In this document: positions 8,054 to 39,001 of the stretch, in pieces | How the letters are laid out: each line of letters starts with the position of its first letter | How positions within the stretch are numbered: position 1 is the stretch's first letter | Source of the DNA: Paraglomus occultum | Taxonomy: Eukaryota > Glomeromycota > Glomeromycetes > Paraglomerales > Paraglomeraceae | Assembly (NCBI GenBank): GCA_910592205.1 | Contig: CAJVPJ010000125.1 | Span: forward strand, 1 to 42,157 | Direction of reading: 5' to 3' | Length of the DNA stretch: 42,157 nt | The notes under the pieces: generated by a model | Told to the model about the DNA's origin: nothing | What the model saw: only the letters and a program-made list of their open reading frames with translations | Databases searched by the model: none | Program-made: the position numbers and the translations under genes

Positions 8054-8174
8054 GCGGGCAGAGAAACTGGAGGTGAGAGCATCAAAAAATCAAGCATCTG
8101 TTTATATATCCAATTTTAAAATCTAATTACAAAATCCCAATTCGTCTAATTCTAATACCTATCTCATATTCATC

Positions 8175-8870
8175 ATGAAATTCATTTGCATTTCCACTCT
8201 TGTAGCTATTCTAGCTACAACCACCATTGCCAGGCCTGTAGCCAACGATGCCACAGCATTGCTTCAAGGTGATATTTTTACCACAAACGGACAGGTCGTC
8301 GGTGACCGCAAGCGTGACTTTTTCATCACAGACGATGTCGTGAAACGTGCAACATTCACTAACAACAACAACAACGGACTGCCTTTCCCTGTTGGCAAAT
8401 GTCCTGGTAACAATAACAACAATAACGGCCCCGGAAATAATAACAATAATAACAACAACGGTGGCACTAACAACAACAATAATAATAACCCTCCTGGCAA
8501 GCGCGGCTTCTTCGTCCCCAACAACAACAACAACAACAATAACAATAACAACGGCTTCGGTACCCCCAACAACAACAACAATAATAATAATAACAACGGC
8601 TTCGGCTTTGGTGCCAACAACAACAACAACAACAACAACAACAACGGCTTCGGTACCCCCAACAACAACAACAACAACAATAATAATAACAACGGACGTA
8701 CTAAGCGCGACTTTTTCGGTGCCATCAGCAACAACAATAATAATAACAACAATAATAATAACGGCTTTTTCGGTACCAATAACAATAACAACAACAACAA
8801 CAACGGCTTCGGCTTCGGTGCCAACAACAACAATAACAACAACAACAACAACGGCTTCGGCTTCGGTGCC

Positions 8871-8905
<35 letters not shown>

Positions 8906-10325
8906 CGGCTTCGGCTTCGGTACCCCCAACAACAACAATAATAATAACAACAACAACAACGGCTTCGGTACCCCCAACAACAATAACAACAACAACAACA
9001 ACAACGGACGTACCAAGCGCGGCTTTTTCGCTCCCAACAACAACAATAACAATAACAATAATAACAACATCGGCTTCGGTACCCCCAACAACAATAACAA
9101 CAACAACAACAACAACAACAACGGACGTACCAAGCGCGGCTTTTTCGTTCCCAACAACAACAACAACAACAATAACAATAACAATAATAACAACTTCGGC
9201 TTCGGTACCCCCAACAACAACAACAACAACAATAATAATAACAACTTCGGCTTCGGTACCCCCAACAACAATAACAATAATAACAACAACAACGGACGTA
9301 CCAAGCGCGGTTTTTTCGTTCCCAACAACAACAACAACAACAATAACAATAATAACAACTTCGGCTTCGGTACCCCCAACAACAACAATAACAACAACAA
9401 TAATAACAACTTCGGCTTCGGTACCCCCAACAACAATAACAACAATAACAACAACAACGGACGTACCAAGCGCGGTTTTTTCGTTCCCAACAACAACAAC
9501 AACAATAACAATAATAACAACATCGGCTTCGGTACCCCCAACAACAATAATAATAACAACAACAACAACGGCTTCGGCTTCGGTGCCAACAACAATAATA
9601 ACAACAACAACAACAACAACGGCTTCGGCTTTGGTGCCAACAACAACAACAATAACAACAACAACAACAACGGCTTCGGCTTCGGTGCCAACAACAATAA
9701 CAACAACAATAACAACAACAACGGCTTCGGTACCCCCAACAATAATAATAATAACAACAACAACAACGGACGTACCAAGCGTGGCCTTTTCGGTGTCCCC
9801 ACCCCCAACAACAACAACAACAACAACAACAACAACGGCTTCGGTATCCCCAACAACAACAACAATAACAACAATAACAACAACGGCTTCGGTACCCCCA
9901 ACAACAATAACAACAACAATAATAACAACGGTTTTGGCTTCGGTGCCCCCAACAACAACAATAACAATAATAACAACAACGGCCTCGGTACCCCCAATAA
10001 CAACAACAATAACAACAACAACAACGGCCTCGGAACCCCCAATAACAACAACAATAATAATAATAACAACAGCGGCCTCGGAACCCCCAATAACAATAAC
10101 AACAACAACAACAACAATGGCCTCGGTACCCCCAACAACAACAATAACAACAACAACAACGGCGGCCTCGGAACCCCCAATAACAACAACAACAACAACA
10201 ATAACAACAGCGGCCTCGGAACTCCCAATAACAATAACAACAATAACAACAACAACAGCGGCCTCGGAACCCCCAATAACAATAACAACAATAACAACAA
10301 CAAAACTCCTCGAGCGCATTTGTAA
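8175..10325 (+). CDS. Secreted Asn-rich repeat precursor with Kex2 sites (KEP-like)
   Basis: Intron-less 716-aa protein. Residues 1-19 form a clear signal peptide (MKFICISTLVAILATTTIA, cleavage before RP). A short spacer with DRKR and VVKR follows. The rest alternates Asn tracts, mostly 9-14 residues, with short GFGTP, GFGFGA or GLGTP linkers. Nine Lys-Arg sites are present, six of them in the exact context GRTKR and mostly followed by GFFVP or GFF/GLF. This is the architecture of Kex2-processed repeat proteins (KEPs), in which a Golgi Kex2 protease releases several similar peptides, as for mating pheromone precursors and ustilagin-type peptides. Predicted peptides would start GFFVP, carry two or more Asn tracts and end GRT after trimming of KR. 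The C-terminal quarter has lost the KR sites and uses GLGTP. The function is unknown. The signal peptide and Kex2 layout are seen directly; secretion and processing are inferred. Confidence 0.88.
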
Positions 10326-10346
10326 AGACATTTGGGCGAGAAAAAA

Positions 10347-10352
10347 AATAAA
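10347..10352 (+). terminator. Poly(A) signal of the secreted repeat gene
   Basis: AATAAA lies 22 bp after the stop codon, with a second copy at 10418-10423. Either could serve as the cleavage/polyadenylation signal. Confidence 0.5.
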
Positions 10353-10423
10353 ACATTAATTTAGCGTTAGCGTTACTATTATCAACTAGATAGTTCAAAT
10401 GTTTACTTGTTACTGATAATAAA

Positions 10424-12494
10424 ATTTATTGGATAATCGAAATTTAATGTTTGACCCGTAGCATTATTGTAACCAGAGATATATGTTTGCTGTTGTATTA
10501 TTTGCGCTGATTTTCTGTCTACTTGTGATGAATATTACGCGATGCATGCCGAACGTTTAAATATGAGGATGTTTATCAGAACGCGACACTCCCAATAATT
10601 CATTGTGGCAACATCTAATTTATATGTCGATGTCACAAGTACATTATAGCTCTATTTGGGAACGTTTACGTAATTAGTTTATAAATAATAATAAATTCCG
10701 TAGTGAGCCAACTAATTAGCGGCCACAAATCACGTGCAGAATGATCAACCGATTGATAACTCGTAGAAATTAAATTAACTTGCAGAAAAGTGACGAAAAG
10801 AGGATATTAAAGAGAACGTCTTTGCTTGAACGATAGATTAATAATAATGTCTTCAATATTATCAGTATTGTTCAAGACTTGTCTGCGTGCTACCAGACAT
10901 CGTCATTCATTCATGCATGCGACTTTATTTATTTTAAAGGTGGGAATTATCTTCCTTCTATTGCAGTCTCTATCTATGGATAAAACGTTACCAAAAACTT
11001 CGTTATAAAGACATCTTCGTTACTGTGTAATACTGTAGTCGACACTTTTCAAATCCCAACGTTCAAATTCTTACAAAACAAATCAAAGTTAATTTAGTTT
11101 GCCAAATCGAAGTGTTACGCAGAGGCTGAGACAGCAGTCGGAATTCTACCATAACAAGGAATACGTTAATAATCCAACCATAACAAGGAATACGTTAATA
11201 TTAATAATCCAACCATAACAAGGAATACGTTAATAATCCAACCATAACAAGGAATACGTTAATAATCCATTATTCGGCTTGAGTTTCACAATTTCACTTG
11301 CCAAATATTGAGCACATGGTAATTTGTGCGTTCTGCTTTAAACAACATACGGGATTGTTGTACGACAGGCTAAACTTTTGTTTTGTTTCGACAAGTTACT
11401 CATGTCACAGGCGCTCGATCGCAAACGCTAATGAATTTGTAGCGATCATCGCAAATTATTCGGGAATACGTATTTGGTGTTGTGCAACTCACGTTAAACA
11501 TACGATCAACGGATAATATAAATCAGGAAACAACAACGTGTAGCAAGTCTGTCTCTGTATTTGTGTAACATCCCATTGTTACGATTTAGACTTTGCTTTA
11601 ATTCAGCGAAGCAAAGCAACCTTATTTACAGTGTACGTTGCTTACTCAAGCAATCTTGACTATCCAGCATTTAATCTGCTAATTAACCCAGAGATTCTGA
11701 GACGTAGTTAATCAGTTCTTGTATTAAAAAGTTGGCAGCACATTTAATGGGGAAGAAAAACGGCAAATGAAAATTAATTTTATTAGGTTTAATTATGAAT
11801 AATGCACCATATCAATGTGTTTTCGTAAGTATCCATGTTAGAGGTCTGGCATGCAAAAAAGATTTTCGTAATGCTATAGCTGATATAAGTTAGCAGTCAC
11901 ATCAGGAACATCGGACGGTTGTCATACGCGCTATAAAAGATTAAATGGGAAATATCTACGATTGATCACATTGTGAACTGTTGTTCTACATGTCGGAAAT
12001 TGGTAAAGTCTATCAATATCAAAATAATACTTGGTAATATAGCAAGTTTTATACCAGCTTACGGGTAAATAGCGTGCTACAGATGGAAATTCTGGTGAGA
12101 TGCAATGTCATCATATGGAACACTCTGTTAAGCAAAAACGAACCGCGTTAAATAACGCACGATCAGATAAGTTCGGATTACCAAAAATGCAGTCTAATTT
12201 TGACATTTATTTAAATAAAATGTAATCGAGAAGACTGGTTATCAAACCCAACTTGAAAACAATTCCCCACTCCCAGTCTTTTTATTTTCACCTGCTGAAA
12301 GTATTCTTGAAGACTGAGTCGAGGGTACAAAAATTGGAGCAATAAGAGTGAAAGCCGTAATATCCAAATAGAGTTATTAATAGATTAACAACCGAAAAAG
12401 GCTGAAAAGAGGAGAATATAGAGAGGCATACGTAATTTATTTACTAAAAACCTGTATCATAATTTCAATAATAATCCGAGCATACTTGACGACA
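10424..12494. other. Gene-poor stretch before the MFS gene
   Basis: No gene was recognised. It contains a tandem repeat (11149-11269) and TTCGTTATAAAG/TTCGTTACTG words near 10998-11022 that resemble decayed pogo-like elements. The last few hundred bases should hold the promoter of the MFS transporter. Confidence 0.5.
11149..11269 (+). repeat. Tandem repeat, four copies of about 29 bp
   Basis: The unit starts CCATAACAAGGAATACGTTA and ends ATAATCCAA (29 bp). Copies: 11149-11177, 11178-11212 (35 bp, with an extra internal TTAATA), 11213-11241 and 11242-11269. The copies are otherwise near identical, so the array is young. It is not in a coding region, and there are no spacers of the CRISPR type. 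Confidence 0.9.
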
Positions 12495-33408: not shown

Positions 33409-35567
33409 ATGGCAAGCATCGAAGAAATCAGACAAGAATTGAGAAAAGCGGAGGCGGAAAAAGCAAAGGCTGAGGCTGTGGTGACGGCGTTCGAAGAAAG
33501 ATATGGGGCGAGGCTGACGTGGTTGGAAAATAAGTTGTGGGGAAGTGAAGGGACTGTGACAGAGCGAGCTGAGTGGAAGGAGGAAAAGGATGAACTGAAG
33601 GCAGAAAAGAAGCAGCTGGAGGCAGACCAAAGGGAGTGTAGGCATCAGGTAGAAAAACTGCAACAAGACCTCACGGAAGCATTGAAAACTCAAACAGGTA
33701 CGACTTTGTGACTCGGGCATTGGGGACATAGAGTAGTGTGTACATTAATATGTACACAGTAATATGATTTTCTTATTACGAGTTCTGGAGTTTGTTGGGT
33801 GTATACTGTTGCTAATTTATGATTCTCAATATTGAACCACATAACCTAATCTATTGTCCCTTTTGTATTTCAAGTTTCTCGTTTTATGGACCTCTCACCC
33901 TCGCGTTCGTCTTCTGTGTGGGGCTCTGCCATCAAGAAACATCCACACTACCTAACTCTCGAAAATTATGACTTTTTGGATGAGCTCACACCCGAAGAAA
34001 CGCGCTTCATTGAAGCAAAATACGACAAACTTAACCAAACCATAAGAACGATTGGAAAGATGAAATCAAGGATGTGCACCCTTGGGTTCAGACGGTTTAC
34101 AAATCTTTGGCGGCAATATGGGGTCTTGCCATTATCAAGGATACGCATAATGGTGGTCCTAGTGGTAGCATATATGCGGATCATTACCTCACAAACCCGT
34201 TTAATAAGGATTTATACACCAAACACAATAAAACAATTGATTGGACGAGATGCTATGCATTTGAAGACAAATTGAAATTGTTAGAGACCGCCCTAAACGA
34301 AGCAATGGTTCAATGTCACAGATACTCCAAGCATTTCTTCAACGCGAGCGAGAATAGGGAACGTAAATATGTCTCAATCATTACTGACGGTTCCGACTAT
34401 GCACTTTGGTATTCATACTGGGACAAGGAATTGCGTGATACAAGGGGTGGTTTGACGGATAGCATAACGTGGAGCAAGGAAACGCTGCTGACTGTCGGAC
34501 GTGTATTCAAGACTTTCGCCGAAGCTGGAATTGGCAGACTCCGTGCTAATGCTTCTCCACGAGAGCTGGAAAGCTTTTTTCCCGACAAAGACATTGCAAA
34601 CGTCGATTCTCCTAATACAACATCTACCTCATTCACTCATCGACATTTGAACATAAATAAAGGGTTATACAACGTGATTCTGCAATGGGCAGTAAAACGC
34701 TCTCAATTCGGTCTTCCGATTGTGTCGACAAGTATCGGTGAAGTTGAAGCATATCGAATTTTAGGGACTGGGTCCAGTTCTATTGTTTTCGAAGCGTACA
34801 CCCCGGAGAATGTACGGGTAGCACTTAAATACAGTTTGGATGATCGTTGTCTGGAACGCGAAGTTCAGATGTTGAAAAAATTCGAAAAACTCGAGGGTAT
34901 TCCGAAATTATTGTACGAAGATCTCCACAATCCTATTATGAGTATCCCATGCATTGTCACCAGCATGGTTGGATTGAAAATCATGAAGGTTGATGTGATA
35001 ACTGCCTGCAACATCATCGCCGATGTTATTGAAATTCTAAAGGCCCTTCATCAATACGGGTACATTCATAACGATATTCATCCTGGGAACATTGTAAATG
35101 TTAATAGTAAATATCGTCTGATAGACTTTGGCTTTGCCGTTCCGCTCTCCAAGAAGAGAGATAATGTCCCCAATAGTTGGCCAGAAGGCCATGTAATATT
35201 TGCCTCTCATAATAGAGGTAAGTGTCTCGGAGCTGGAGATGACTTGGAATCCCTTTGTTATACAATTGCATTTATGTACGATTCGAACAAGGCATATTGG
35301 GACACTGTCACCAAGGATCCATACCAGGCAATTCATATGAAAGAAAGAAAACTCACTTATCTGTTTGACGGGCTTCCACTAGTATTTCAAGACTTTTTTG
35401 ACTATGTCTACGATCTTGACATCACGGTGACGCCGGACTATGAATATTGGCGGAGCTCGTTCCTGGAGACTGTGGGAAGTTGTTCTCGACCAAAAAAACA
35501 CCTTCGAGAAACGTCACAAGGAAGTTCTAACCATAACCGACGTCGAATTGAGCAACAGGTCTGGTGA
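33409..35567 (+). pseudogene. Coiled-coil + protein kinase protein (CRN-like), apparent frameshift
   Basis: Exon 1 is 33409-33697, encoding a charged coiled coil rich in Glu, Lys and Ala. After a GT-AG intron the frame resumes at 33875 and switches frame near 34042-34046, where one base appears missing in an A run, then stays open to TGA at 35567. The C-terminal part is a protein kinase with all key residues: Gly-rich loop GTGSSSIVF (about 34765), VALK lysine (34826), helix-C Glu in EREVQML, HNDIHPGN loop (about 35067) and DFG (about 35124), of CK1/bacterial-like style. The middle region (containing ITDGSDYALW) is unassigned and may be nuclease-like. Coiled coil + middle domain + kinase recalls Crinkler/CR-type proteins abundant in Glomeromycotina, but no LxLFLAK header is present. 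A weak intron (about 34073-34160) could bridge the frames instead, in which case the gene is intact. Confidence 0.65.
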
Positions 35568-35891
35568 AAAGCAATTCTAAGTGTCCTCACTGTCAATAGA
35601 ATCCCTGTTATCATTGCTTTAGAAGTAAATTCTGCTTAAATTTCTGCATACTAATGCAAATAAAATAGATCACGTGTAAAATACTACATTTCAGCACAAT
35701 AAAGGATAATATGTTCTGGCAAATTTTGTCTATGACCATGAAACTTGATTTGCTGCTATTACTGTTCTAATGTTATCACTGTCATTTTCAAAAGAATAAG
35801 TAACAAGCTTTCTATTTTCGACCAGAAATCTAACCAGTCAAACAGGTTTAACGGATCTACTGTTAAAATTATTATATAGGATTACCCGTAT
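35568..35891. other. Spacer between the kinase gene and the UGA-reading segment
   Basis: The AATAAA-like 3' end of the upstream gene (near 35659) lies here. Somewhere in about 35700-35880 the sequence should pass from fungal to foreign DNA. I cannot place the join from composition alone. No inverted repeat or target duplication is obvious. Confidence 0.4.
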
Positions 35892-37655
35892 ATGATAAAT
35901 AACGAATATAATGGTTCCACTGAATATGAAAAAGCAATCCGTTTCTTAGAGATAGGTTGCAATTGTGGTTGCTCAGAAATGATTCCGAGAGAAAGGTTTG
36001 CCGAATTACGTGAAGCGTTTCAAGCTCTCTCTAGATCCGAACAAGATATATTTTTAATGGCTCAGCTGAAAGCAATGAACGGTGGAGAAATAACTGCCAG
36101 TCGACGTCTTAAAAAGAAAACACGTACTAATAAGCGAACGTTTTACTACTGAGATCGCAATACGCCGCTTTGTCAGAAAACGTATCTAAATATGTTAGGA
36201 ATTGGTCGTACCCATTTCGAAAACGTTAGAAACCATCTCGCAACCAACGGTATAATGCCACGCATTCACGGTAATATCAAACGAGTGCCGCGATGGAAAA
36301 CCAAAATAACCATTGATATCACTGTCGCTACCGCTGTGAAAAATTTTCTCGAAAACTATGCCGAAATTCATGGATTACCAAGTCCGGGTAGAAATGTCAA
36401 TCGTATTACTCAATCGCTTACACTTCTGCCAGCTGAAACGAGTTACAAGTCAGTTTATCGTCATTTTATTGCCGGTCTCGAAAATGATAACGCGTTGAAA
36501 TTGTTAAAATATGATGCATTCCGCAAGTTATGGCATCAATTAACGCCTTATATTCAAATCATGAGTCCAAGAACAGATTTATGTGACACGTGTCAACATT
36601 TTCGGAACGGCTTGCAATACAATGCTCGCAAGGAAGAAGAAGCGAAAGATTTATTGAAAAAATTCAAAGAACATCTAACTAAAGCTAAATTAGAAAGAAA
36701 TTATTATAACAAAAATACGAAATTAGCAGAACAACAGAGAAAATTGGTAGATGAGCATTTTATAACAAGAGGTAAAGCTTATTGTAGCATTGACGCGACG
36801 GCGCATTACAGTTACGATTGAGCGCAAAACGTTCACGTGCCCCATTCTGATCAACAGGTAAGTAAAATTTATTATCTCAGTCCGCGTAAAGTGCATTTAT
36901 TTGGTATCCAAGATGAAGCAGTACGCAAACAAATTAATTACGTTCTTGATGAAGACGAAATTATCGGCAAAGGCCCTAACGGCACCCTGAGCCTGGTATT
37001 CGATGGGATTAAGCGATTGAATAAAGGTGAAAAGCATTTAAAGATTACTTGTGATAATGCGGGTGGTCAGAATAAAAATAACGTCACGATTTGATTTTAC
37101 CTATATTTAGTAATCTGCGGCTATTATGAAAGTATCGAATTAAATTTTATGGTGCCTGGACATACTAAATTCAAATGTGATGGTAGTTTCGGACTGATTA
37201 AAAAACTTTATCGAAAAATGACAGTGGATTGTATAGAACATATCGTTGAGGTTGTGAAAAGATCAAGTACAGCCGAATTAAACAAAGCTCAGTGCTATGA
37301 AAACGGCAAAGGCTTTCAATATTTAGATCTTAATTCCGTATTGGGAATTTTCTTTAAAAAATTGAGTGGATTACAAAAATATCAGCATTTTGTATTCGAA
37401 GCAGTCAAACCTGGTATTGTCAAGGCTCAGCTGGTTGCTAATGGTGCTTATATGGAATTTAATTTATTGAAAACCAGAAAAGCAAGTGTTTCCGAAATTA
37501 CCAAAGAAATTAAATCTTTTTCTATTTTAGTTCTAACTCCGCCTCCTTTGGATTACAAAAGACAAGAATATCTTTATCATAATATTCGCCCATTCGTTAG
37601 AGATAAATTCAAGGATATTACTTGTCCCAAACCAATCTATACTGAGAATAAATAA
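35892..37655 (+). CDS. DDE-like transposase with three in-frame UGA (Trp) codons
   Basis: A single frame of 588 codons from ATG 35892 to TAA 37653-37655, interrupted only by TGA at 36150, 36819 and 37092. Residues around them read FYY-*-DRNTP, YSYD-*-AQNVH and NVTI-*-FYLY; Trp fits the last two well. Two TGG codons also occur. Features: an N-terminal Cys cluster (GCNCGC), a GIGRTHFENVRNH helix-turn-helix-like stretch, a zinc-type knuckle DLCDTCQHF, a coiled-coil-like charged region, then SIDAT, CDNAGGQNKN and GHTKFKCDGSFG, which look like a DDE/RNase-H transposase core. The DNxGGQNKN style is shared with a eukaryotic transposase-like family (DUF7869-like, from memory). Under code 4 it is an intact 587-aa protein; under the standard code it is broken in four. 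Base composition resembles the fungus more than the next frame does. Confidence 0.75.
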
Positions 37656-37765: not shown

Positions 37766-38384
37766 ATGATAAAAAAAAAAGAAATTAAAATCATGACATT
37801 CAATAAAAATGATATAAATACAATAGATGAAGCAAAAGAATACTCCAATTATTATGGAGGAGTCCTTAAACCGGAAGAAAAGTCTATCTTTGATAGTTCT
37901 CTTTTAACAGATGTTTCTTTAATTCAAGATACTGCTCAGTTATTAAACAATTGAAGAGAATCCAGAGAAAAAATAAAAAAAGAAAGAATGGGTTTAAGTT
38001 CAGAAAGTCATAATTTATTGGCTTCTATTTTAAAAGAGCAAAAGGCTGAATCTATTCCTTATCAAGTTGTTAATAATCTAAATGACAATAAACCAGTTGA
38101 TAAGGTTGTTAGTCAATTTGAAGATATTTTGTTTAGTGAATCTGATCCTGAATTTGATCAAAAAATAGAAGAGGCAGCACTTAAAATTAATGATTTGAAG
38201 GAAAAAGGAGAAGCTATTGATAAAGAAATTAAAGAGTTAAAAAAGAAATATAATGATTTACTAGAAAAAAAACAAACTGTTTTAGAAACTAAGATTAATG
38301 CAGCAGTTGCTGCTTTAAAAAATGATCTTAGAACTATTGGTGCAGGTGGTCGCAGGTTTTTTGAAGAAACAATTAATACTATGT
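37766..38384 (+). CDS. Coiled-coil protein with in-frame UGA, truncated at junction
   Basis: The frame opens at ATG 37766 (or 37793), meets TGA at 37952-37954 and continues in the same frame without another stop until the sequence joins fungal DNA near 38384. Read with UGA as Trp it is at least 206 codons and lacks its true C-terminus. It is very rich in Lys, Glu, Asn and Ile. Residues about 130-190 (EEAALKINDLKEKGEAIDKE and following) are a strong coiled coil, ending in ALKNDLRTIGAGGRRFFEE. The A-rich codon choice (AAA, GAA, TTA, AAT) is far from that of the fungal genes around it and suits a Mollicute. I recognise no family. It follows the transposase after a 110-bp AT-rich gap. Confidence 0.6.
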
Positions 38385-39001
38385 CAAGTTTATGCAAATA
38401 TAACAACCCATCACTAATCCCCAAAGCCAGCTTGTACTTGTCCTCCCACGTCAGCTTAGGGAAATATTTCTGCAGATGTTCAAACAAAGTTCCGCCGTCT
38501 GCATATTCAAAGACCATGTGATAGGGCCCAGATAAATCTATTCAGATATATTAATATGGAATTGGATAAGTTGTAATCGTTATGTACGGAAAACATGACG
38601 TTAAGTATAAGTTATGCACCTTGACATATTCCCAAGAAGCGAATAACGTTTGGATGATCGTCCACTTGTTTATGAGTTCTCAGCTATCACATTATAATTC
38701 AATTTATACAACGTTCAAACGCTATACAACGACGACGACGATACGTAAGTAGTACCAACCTCTTTGACAAACTGTTTATATAATTCATCTTCACATCCGT
38801 ATCGATTTAGAAACAAAGTTTTCATAGCGACCAATTTTCCAGAATGCTTTATCCGGGCTTTGTATACGACGCCATATCCACCATGGCCGAGAAGTGTACG
38901 ATCCAGGATGTCTCTTCCGAATAGTGTTTGATAATTCCTTCTTGGATACTCTTAGCTAACCACTCCTTGTATGTATTGTCATTCGATTGACTTTGGGACA
39001 T
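38384..39001 (-). pseudogene. Fungal protein kinase, N-terminal half, broken
   Basis: Minus-strand exons: 39001-38760, 38683-38626 and 38537-about 38384. It starts MSQSQSND with a KEWLAKSIQEGIIKHY stretch, the usual head of the expanded Glomeromycotina Tyr-kinase-like family. The N-lobe follows: GHGGYGVVYKA loop, VAMK lysine, HPNVIRFLGI, MVFEYADGGTL hinge, then GISDGLLYLHKLDIV. The next residues should be HRDLH, but the sequence instead becomes the complement of the A-rich foreign frame, so the catalytic loop, DFG and C-lobe are missing. An earlier defect near 38913-38920 (one base missing between EEGIIKHYS-type and ILDRTLLG-type frames) also breaks the frame. The C-lobe was not found elsewhere in the window. 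It may have been dead before the join. Confidence 0.72.

What the first reader, a model, noticed from the sequence alone, without database searches (positions are those of the whole stretch)
35892..37655. Transposase gene whose only internal stops are UGA: read with genetic code 4 inside a standard-code genome
Seen: 588 codons, three internal TGA, no TAA or TAG. At two of the TGA sites Trp fits the surrounding residues (YSYD-*-AQNVH, NVTI-*-FYLY), and at the third it is plausible. Random decay in AT-rich DNA should give TAA and TAG too, plus frameshifts; none are seen. Neighbouring host genes (XRN1, H+-ATPase, MFS) end in TGA and use TGG for Trp. Known: Mollicutes, including the Moeniiplasma-type endobacteria of arbuscular mycorrhizal fungi, read UGA as Trp. 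Inference: this element lives, or lived, in such an endobacterium and now sits in, or next to, the fungal chromosome.
Basis: partly seen in the sequence, partly recalled or inferred. Interest (0 to 1): 0.92.

Follow-up and report, generated by a model that had tools for sequence, protein, structure and literature searches.

The report
Bacterial-code transposon dispersed through fungal chromosomes
A jumping gene that makes sense only in the genetic code of the bacteria living inside these fungi sits roughly ninety times in the genome of a plant-root fungus, as if it had been copied in from the bacteria again and again.

Summary
In detail: window 35892-37655 (Paraglomus occultum) is one 587-codon frame with three TGA and no TAA/TAG before its end. 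The product has a predicted DDE/RNase H integrase fold (DUF7869). It is one of a family: about 92 left ends in this assembly; 30 of 31 flank pieces tested look fungal. In 52 aligned pieces, five Trp columns read TGA 89, TGG 50, TAA/TAG 8, other 3 of 150; other stops number 24 in 15,875 codons. Among 26 well-covered copies, dN/dS (code 4) is 0.10 at dS 0.54, closest pair dS 0.33. So they diverged mostly while UGA meant Trp, with little sign of recent multiplication in the nucleus (one exact local duplicate, outside that set). The nearest named bacterial relative is in Candidatus Moeniiplasma; the assembly also holds a bacterial contig with TGA inside its frames. Gene models from five other mycorrhizal genera skip the same Trp columns. 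Best reading: a Mollicutes-code transposon that entered fungal chromosomes repeatedly from endobacteria and cannot be read there. Code-4 origin and nuclear residence are well supported; repeated cross-domain transposition is inferred. No copy was shown on a bacterial contig.

The parts
34035..35567 (+). Fungal protein kinase ORF (single exon), left neighbour; TGG for Trp, TGA stop
   Evidence: Pfam PF00069/PF17667; 12 TGG, terminal TGA
35865..35894 (+). Left end of the element (AAAATTA..ATAT|AGGATTACCC..ATG)
   Evidence: 22-mer at 35873-35894 has 98 matches in the assembly at <=3 mismatches, reversed-pattern control 1; 6 of the 98 are closer to a related internal motif, leaving about 92; most of the 20 upstream stretches compared differ from one another outside it, with a few shared flanks
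35892..37655 (+). DDE transposase-like gene, code 4 (TGA=Trp), DUF7869 family
36150..36152 (+). TGA at Trp column 87
   Evidence: TGA 35, TAA 1, TGT 1 of 37 aligned pieces
36819..36821 (+). TGA at Trp column 310, beside the putative catalytic D309
   Evidence: TGA 18, TGG 10 of 28
37092..37094 (+). TGA at Trp column 401
   Evidence: TGA 18, TAA 3, TGG 1 of 22
37766..38381 (+). Second (passenger) gene, code 4, truncated on the right; TGA at 37952 read as Trp
   Evidence: P0054; 20 matching pieces in the assembly; 25 relatives, the named ones all from mycorrhizal fungi
38382..38410 (.). Right junction: the passenger gene departs from its relatives and runs into fungal kinase-like sequence; the element's usual right end was not found here
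   Evidence: exact base of the junction not fixed
38411..39001 (-). Kinase-like gene pieces cut at the junction (GHGGYGVVYKA readable in one frame)
   Evidence: three-frame translation, read by eye; not confirmed by a profile search

Best explanation
The locus is a nuclear copy of a DNA transposon family that lives, or lived until recently, in the Mollicutes endobacteria of arbuscular mycorrhizal fungi, where UGA means Trp. SHOWN: the genes are written in code 4; copies are dispersed through contigs that look fungal and share a left end, and a right end where one was found; the well-covered copies diverged from one another under strong purifying selection read with code 4. INFERRED: a transposase made in the bacterium (DDE chemistry, probably D309/D388/D430) cuts the element out, and element DNA, perhaps still carrying bacterially made protein, reaches the fungal nucleus and inserts at ATAT-like sites. 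There its genes cannot be read in full, because the fungus stops at UGA, so each copy is dead on arrival and decays. The bacterial pool keeps evolving and keeps sending new copies. A small co-travelling ORF with a basic C-terminus (PRKKRKL, like a nuclear localisation signal; resemblance recalled) may help nuclear entry (speculative).
For: Code 4: five Trp columns TGA 89, TGG 50, TAA/TAG 8, other 3 of 150 cells; off-Trp stops 24 among 15,875 codons. Selection: 26 copies, 321 pairs, median dN/dS 0.10, dN 0.055, dS 0.54, closest pair dS 0.33; long end branches, short inner ones. Nuclear: 30 of 31 flank pieces score fungal; a copy with an open 589-codon transposase frame (4 TGA) lies on a 146-kb contig that also carries Rax2. 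Not bulk transfer: one match each for bacterial 16S and the rpoA-like protein, both on C537. The resident bacterial contig has TGA inside its frames. Relatives: joined to the Moeniiplasma group by a fork at 100/99. Other fungi: 22 gene models (Ambispora, Geosiphon, Diversispora, Gigaspora, Funneliformis) skip Trp columns 310 (14 of 15), 87 (9 of 11), 401 (9 of 14); median over all columns 17%, mean at columns over 25 residues from any Trp 10%. No standard-code provider seen: every match to a Rhizophagus relative that spans 230 or more of its 636 residues has a TGA, and no stop-free match spans more than 194.
Against: No copy was located on a bacterial contig, so the donor pool is not seen directly. 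C771 holds two copies of one decayed piece, 100% identical over 1,100 bp and 8,290 bp apart, so local nuclear duplication (or assembly redundancy) does occur. Some copies share host flank (window/C1306/C260; L019/L024) although their transposases are no closer than other pairs, and some share about 40-75 bp of flank; this needs target preference or another process. The two ends are not inverted repeats, and the ATAT beside them (9 of 13 right ends) was not tested on an empty site. Trp column 87 is never TGG, so it shows no toggling. Recombination among source lineages could mimic the star-like tree. The weakest flank scores (-39, -44) are not far from the element's own (-34, -26). Whole-genome searches score only part of their candidates, so absences are soft. 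The assembly contains bacterial DNA, and reads were not available.
Confidence: 0.68

Rival explanations
1. One or a few ancient transfers from the endobacterium, followed by amplification inside the fungal nucleus by a transposase supplied in trans (a standard-code relative such as the Rhizophagus-type protein).
For: About 92 left ends at a common boundary look like a transposon burst; Rhizophagus carries a 636-aa relative (P0026); one exactly duplicated piece exists on C771.
Against: Copies spread in trans would diverge neutrally: expected N/S 3.87, while shared variants show 0.36 and singletons 1.53; dN/dS 0.10; no pair below dS 0.33 among 321. The C771 pair lies on one contig and strand, as a local duplication would. 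No intact standard-code relative was seen in the assembly (introns could hide one).
Confidence: 0.14
2. The family is active in the nucleus, and the fungus reads UGA as Trp in these mRNAs (readthrough or a suppressor tRNA).
For: Purifying selection between copies in the fungal assembly; several mycorrhizal genera carry such copies.
Against: 25 of 28 loci checked have a frame change or TAA/TAG in the matched span; only the C1 copy and two pieces at contig ends are open. The host kinase uses TGG 12 times and ends in TGA; two other host ORFs use TGG 8 and 9 times (ORFs chosen as open in the standard code lack TGA by construction). Public gene models omit the sites.
Confidence: 0.08
3. Assembly artefact: endobacterial transposon copies joined to fungal contigs by misassembly or amplification chimeras.
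For: The assembly does contain bacterial DNA; mixed endobacterium/fungus assemblies are reported (PMC11423566, passages read).
Against: Copies carry graded decay (TAA/TAG, frame changes); flank/element junctions recur in diverged host duplicates; Geosiphon gene models with the same gaps come from contigs up to 1.19 Mb (P0011).
Confidence: 0.06
4. Mitochondrial origin: many fungal mitochondria also read UGA as Trp (recalled).
For: Code 4 is shared by both.
Against: The nearest named non-fungal relative is a Moeniiplasma protein on a 124-kb contig. Profile searches named no family for the passenger genes, which neither supports nor excludes this.
Confidence: 0.03
5. Ordinary decay of a standard-code transposon with G-to-A bias (TGG to TGA).
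For: TGG to TGA is a transition; TAG also occurs at Trp columns (4 of 150 cells).
Against: TGA is the commoner state at columns 87, 310 and 401 across copies; off-Trp stops are rare; dN/dS 0.10.
Confidence: 0.01

Closest known systems
Candidatus Moeniiplasma glomeromycotorum DUF7869 protein (MAG I3273_02745 = P0030)
   Same: 52% identical over 56% of the query; Trp at 310 and 401; its group joins the window family at a fork of 100/99; bacterium of the same kind of host
   Different: Shorter (329 aa); its codons were not seen (no DNA of that record was found in the collections)
Rhizophagus irregularis GLOIN_2v1769618 (P0026), DUF7869 protein on a 2-Mb contig
   Same: Same domain and putative D/D/D positions, 37% identical, Trp at 310
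   Different: Long fungal gene model that keeps the columns of all three sites; Y at 87 and F at 401
DDE/RNase H transposases and integrases (Mos1, IstA, retroviral integrase)
   Different: Roughly 8-15% sequence identity; not assignable by sequence; ends lack matching inverted repeats
Gene exchange between mycorrhizal fungi and their Mollicutes (PMC10507103, PMC5982333 and PMC10386755, passages read; Naito 2015 and Torres-Cortes 2015 only as cited there)
   Same: Same partners; transfer documented
   Different: The direction reported in those passages is host to bacterium; PMC5982333 states that its bacterial donors to Rhizophagus were not known endobacteria; no mobile element in the host nucleus is described in the passages read
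Nuclear copies of organelle or Wolbachia DNA (recalled)
   Same: Endosymbiont DNA in host chromosomes, non-functional there
   Different: Those are arbitrary fragments; here one element with common ends, and the two chromosomal markers tried were found only on the bacterial contig

Membership tests
Pfam PF25273 (DUF7869) | Profile score above the curated cut-off | tested here: met
   62.9 bits against 26
DDE/D RNase H-like transposase | RNase H-like catalytic fold | tested here: met
DDE/D RNase H-like transposase | Three conserved acidic catalytic residues | tested here: inconclusive
   D388 and D430 invariant, D309 nearly invariant in 25 rows; assignment as triad is inferred
DDE/D RNase H-like transposase | Terminal inverted repeats and target-site duplication | tested here: inconclusive
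   Common ends found; ATAT after 9 of 13 right ends and on both sides of the C1 element; no matching inverted repeat seen at C1; no empty site tested
Mollicutes-code (table 4) gene | TGA at conserved Trp positions, interchangeable with TGG | tested here: met
   89 TGA and 50 TGG of 150 cells; both states at four of five columns, column 87 TGA only
Moeniiplasma-type endobacterial element | Nearest named bacterial relatives in Moeniiplasma | tested here: met
   Group with P0030 joined at 100/99; one named Moeniiplasma row only
Moeniiplasma-type endobacterial element | Presence on an endobacterial chromosome with TGA-coded Trp | not testable with these tools
Bulk endosymbiont-to-nucleus DNA (numt-like) | Unrelated pieces of the bacterial chromosome also inserted | tested here: not met
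   One match each for 16S and the rpoA-like protein, both on the bacterial contig C537; only two markers tried, and the 16S search scored 5 of 208 candidates
Known bacterial IS family in NCBIfam | Score above a transposase model cut-off | tested here: not met
   No NCBIfam match above cut-off for P0001

The most novel reading that the evidence does not exclude
An inter-domain transposon: an element replicating in Mollicutes endosymbionts inserts directly and recurrently into its host's nuclear chromosomes, roughly ninety times in one fungus and also in other mycorrhizal lineages, possibly aided by a co-travelling small protein with a eukaryotic nuclear-localisation-like tail. The family may itself have come from a fungal transposon that was recoded in the bacterium and then returned.
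Probability: 0.4. Interest if true: 0.96.

Novelty: new variant of a known kind. Interest (0 to 1): 0.86.

Why it matters
Movement of DNA from endosymbionts to nuclei is usually seen as rare, passive leakage of random fragments. Here the foreign code works as a built-in label: TGA at a Trp column marks a gene that was written and selected where UGA means Trp. That makes it possible to count and date separate transfers in living fungi, and to ask whether a bacterial transposase can act across domains. It would also explain a class of broken or chimeric gene models in public mycorrhizal genomes.

Tried and rejected
Scans of genome contigs with the protein and with an alignment led by the Moeniiplasma row found nothing, so the donor's own DNA was not seen. 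Profile searches gave no usable family for the passenger genes or the small ORF; sub-threshold hits (including a weak Viral_Rep hit for P0205, 17.2 bits against a cut-off of 26) are not used. I first took a motif near the right side (TATAGGATTACCTCTATATA) for an inverted repeat of the left end; in the copies seen it lies some 200 bp inside the real right end and is not a terminal repeat. I first read the shared kinase flank of three loci as proof of one insertion followed by duplication; the transposases of the window and C1306 copies are as distant as other pairs (dS 0.61), so I dropped that reading. A search for an inverted repeat left of the C1 transposase found only a best match with 16 of 37 mismatches. 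Frameshift counts from nucleotide gaps overstate decay in divergent copies (the open C1 frame shows 14), so I use the protein-level check instead. Composition of the element itself lies between the fungal and bacterial models and decides nothing. Literature: nine full-text searches listed no title or abstract start reporting a UGA-recoded transposon in a fungal nucleus. Passages of seven papers were seen (PMC11134847, PMC9453076 with its section 7, PMC5982333, PMC10386755, PMC11291939, PMC11423566, PMC10507103); none was read whole. Subscription papers and preprints are not held.

Full report

WHOSE GENOME. The best match to the window's H+-ATPase exons (77% with intron-derived residues in the query) is a Paraglomus occultum protein on a contig of 42,157 bases, exactly the window's length. 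The assembly (32.3 Mb, 1,408 contigs) also holds contig C537 with a full bacterial 16S, tRNA-Asn, a protein that by eye is RNA polymerase alpha (here 'rpoA-like'), and TGA inside its frames. I take it for the Mollicutes endobacterium; its taxonomy was not tested. Reports of endobacterial contigs in such assemblies exist (PMC11423566, passages).

THE FAMILY. The transposase gives 99 matching pieces in the assembly, several copies contributing more than one; 74 of 802 candidates were scored, so this is a lower bound. The best-kept copies have TGA only or nearly so; the more decayed ones also have TAA and TAG. From 46 fetched stretches and other loci, 52 pieces align to the window's frame (the window's own copy is not among them). 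At the five Trp columns the codon is TGA 89, TGG 50, TAA/TAG 8, other 3 of 150; per column: 87 TGA 35 of 37; 135 TGG 20, TGA 8 of 32; 214 TGG 19, TGA 10 of 31; 310 TGA 18, TGG 10 of 28; 401 TGA 18, TGG 1 of 22. Elsewhere 24 stops occur (the 15,875 codons examined include the Trp columns). TGA and TGG thus behave as synonyms at four of five columns, and column 87 is fixed for TGA.

SELECTION. For the 26 rows (window included) with at least half of the frame and over 80% identity (the others were dropped, among them the divergent C1 copy), 321 of 325 pairs had enough codons. Median dN/dS with code 4 is 0.10, dN 0.055, dS 0.54; the smallest dS is 0.33. Variants found in two or more copies have N/S 0.36, those found once 1.53, against 3.87 without selection. 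The FastTree tree has long end branches (0.05-0.11) and short inner ones (0.004-0.020), many weakly supported. I read this as copies drawn from many lineages that had long been under selection while UGA meant Trp, then decaying after insertion: 25 of 28 loci checked at protein level have a frame change or TAA/TAG. Amplification inside the nucleus would have left close pairs and neutral divergence. One such close pair exists outside the 26: a decayed piece on C771 occurs twice, 100% identical over 1,100 bp, 8,290 bp apart on the same strand, which looks like local duplication or assembly redundancy. Recombination in the source pool could also flatten the tree.

NUCLEAR RESIDENCE. With a 4-mer model trained on the window and on C537, 30 of 31 flank pieces from 21 loci score fungal (-39 to -130); one (L010, first 1,000 bases) scores +32. 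Held-out fungal pieces score -57 to -104, held-out bacterial ones +5 and +25; the element itself scores -34 (window) and -26 (C1), so the weakest flanks are not cleanly separated from it (small training set). The copy on C1 (146 kb) lies near a Rax2 gene; its transposase frame is open for 589 codons with four TGA, while its passenger frames appear broken. The bacterial chromosome as such was not found scattered: one match each for 16S and the rpoA-like protein, both on C537 (two markers only).

OTHER FUNGI. Of the 52 protein relatives, 26 bear fungal names; I compared 22 (Ambispora, Geosiphon, Diversispora, Gigaspora, Funneliformis) and left out four more distant ones (P0026, P0031, P0042, P0043). 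The models skip Trp column 310 in 14 of 15 spanning cases, 87 in 9 of 11 and 401 in 9 of 14; columns 135 and 214, mostly TGG in P. occultum, are skipped in 3 of 14 and 5 of 14. The median over all 527 columns is 17%, the mean at columns more than 25 residues from a Trp 10%; by rank, 310 is among the top 3, 87 the top 13 and 401 the top 31. Where the residue is present it is always Trp. One Geosiphon model (contig 1.19 Mb) ends at residue 400, just before column 401. So TGA-bearing copies very probably sit in those genomes too; their DNA was not seen. Some models run on into passenger genes that by eye are of the same types (P0019, P0027, P0041, P0046).

RELATIONSHIP. In a 30-row tree the window's clade (11 rows, which I labelled 'code4' although codons were seen only for P0001 and P0204) is one side of a branch at 100/99 and joins a group with the Moeniiplasma protein at 100/99; beside them lie Rhizophagus-type proteins. 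The root is arbitrary, so a fungal origin of the bacterial family is possible but not shown.

ANATOMY. A right end, TGTTCACTTTGTCTGGTTTTGTTGCAG(TC, CA or TA)TGCCCC with small changes, was found at 13 places in the loci held then, followed by ATAT in 9. The left end reads ATAT|AGGATTACCC; the C1 element has ATAT on both sides. Passenger genes differ between copies: coiled-coil proteins, a CxxC protein, the window's gene. An 86-residue ORF without Trp, ending in PRKKRKL plus four residues, lies near the right end in several copies and beside the transposase in C1; it has at least 150 matching pieces in the assembly (150 scored of 414 candidates). Its dN/dS has a median of 0.145 over 26 pairs of eight short sequences, six pairs having saturated dS; about 0.155 over the other 20. 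Its nuclear-signal reading is from memory of known signals, not a test.

UNSOLVED. Some unrelated copies share host flank: window with C1306 and C260, L019 with L024, and shorter pieces in L050/L059, L054/L056/L068 and L010/L023. Their transposases are not closer than other pairs where this was measured (window/L010 dS 0.61, L019/L024 0.53; the L010/L023 flank pair involves the other copy on L010 and was not measured; L050/L059 are 90% identical over 633 bp; the first 74 bases of the C260 frame are identical to the window's). Target preference would explain this; it was not tested.

VERDICT (my odds). Code-4 origin and nuclear residence of the family: about 0.93. Repeated entry from the bacteria rather than nuclear amplification: about 0.7. 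Transposition across domains as the way of entry: about 0.5.

Noticed in passing
window 8127-10425: Overlapping ORFs of 566-732 aa in five frames with extreme strand skews: a low-complexity or tandem-repeat block.
   Followed up: no
L009 842-1102 (P0205) and >=150 matching pieces in the assembly: Small ORF with C-terminal PRKKRKL, apparently more numerous than the transposase; may also exist as a separate short element.
   Followed up: partly
L050/L059, L054/L056/L068, L010/L023, L019/L024, window/C1306/C260: Left flanks of unrelated copies fall into shared classes of about 40 bp to over 1 kb: target preference, upstream module or recombination.
   Followed up: partly
C771:400-1500 and 8690-9790 (L072, L073): A decayed element piece duplicated exactly (100% over 1,100 bp) on one contig: local duplication or assembly redundancy.
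   Followed up: partly
public proteins P0024 (Geosiphon G9A89_008622), P0045 (Funneliformis), P0025 (Ambispora): Fungal gene models that fuse host genes (kinase domains in P0024 and P0045) with pieces of the element: probable annotation artefacts.
   Followed up: partly
L038 (C537:7000-13000): Endobacterial contig (16S, rpoA-like protein, tRNA-Asn) in the fungal assembly.
   Followed up: partly
window 38382-39001: Kinase-like gene on the minus strand interrupted at the element's right junction; its pieces lie in different frames.
   Followed up: partly
C35 near 60,470 (L047): A paralogue of the window's left flank ends in the right end of another copy in the opposite orientation, perhaps a nested insertion.
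   Followed up: no
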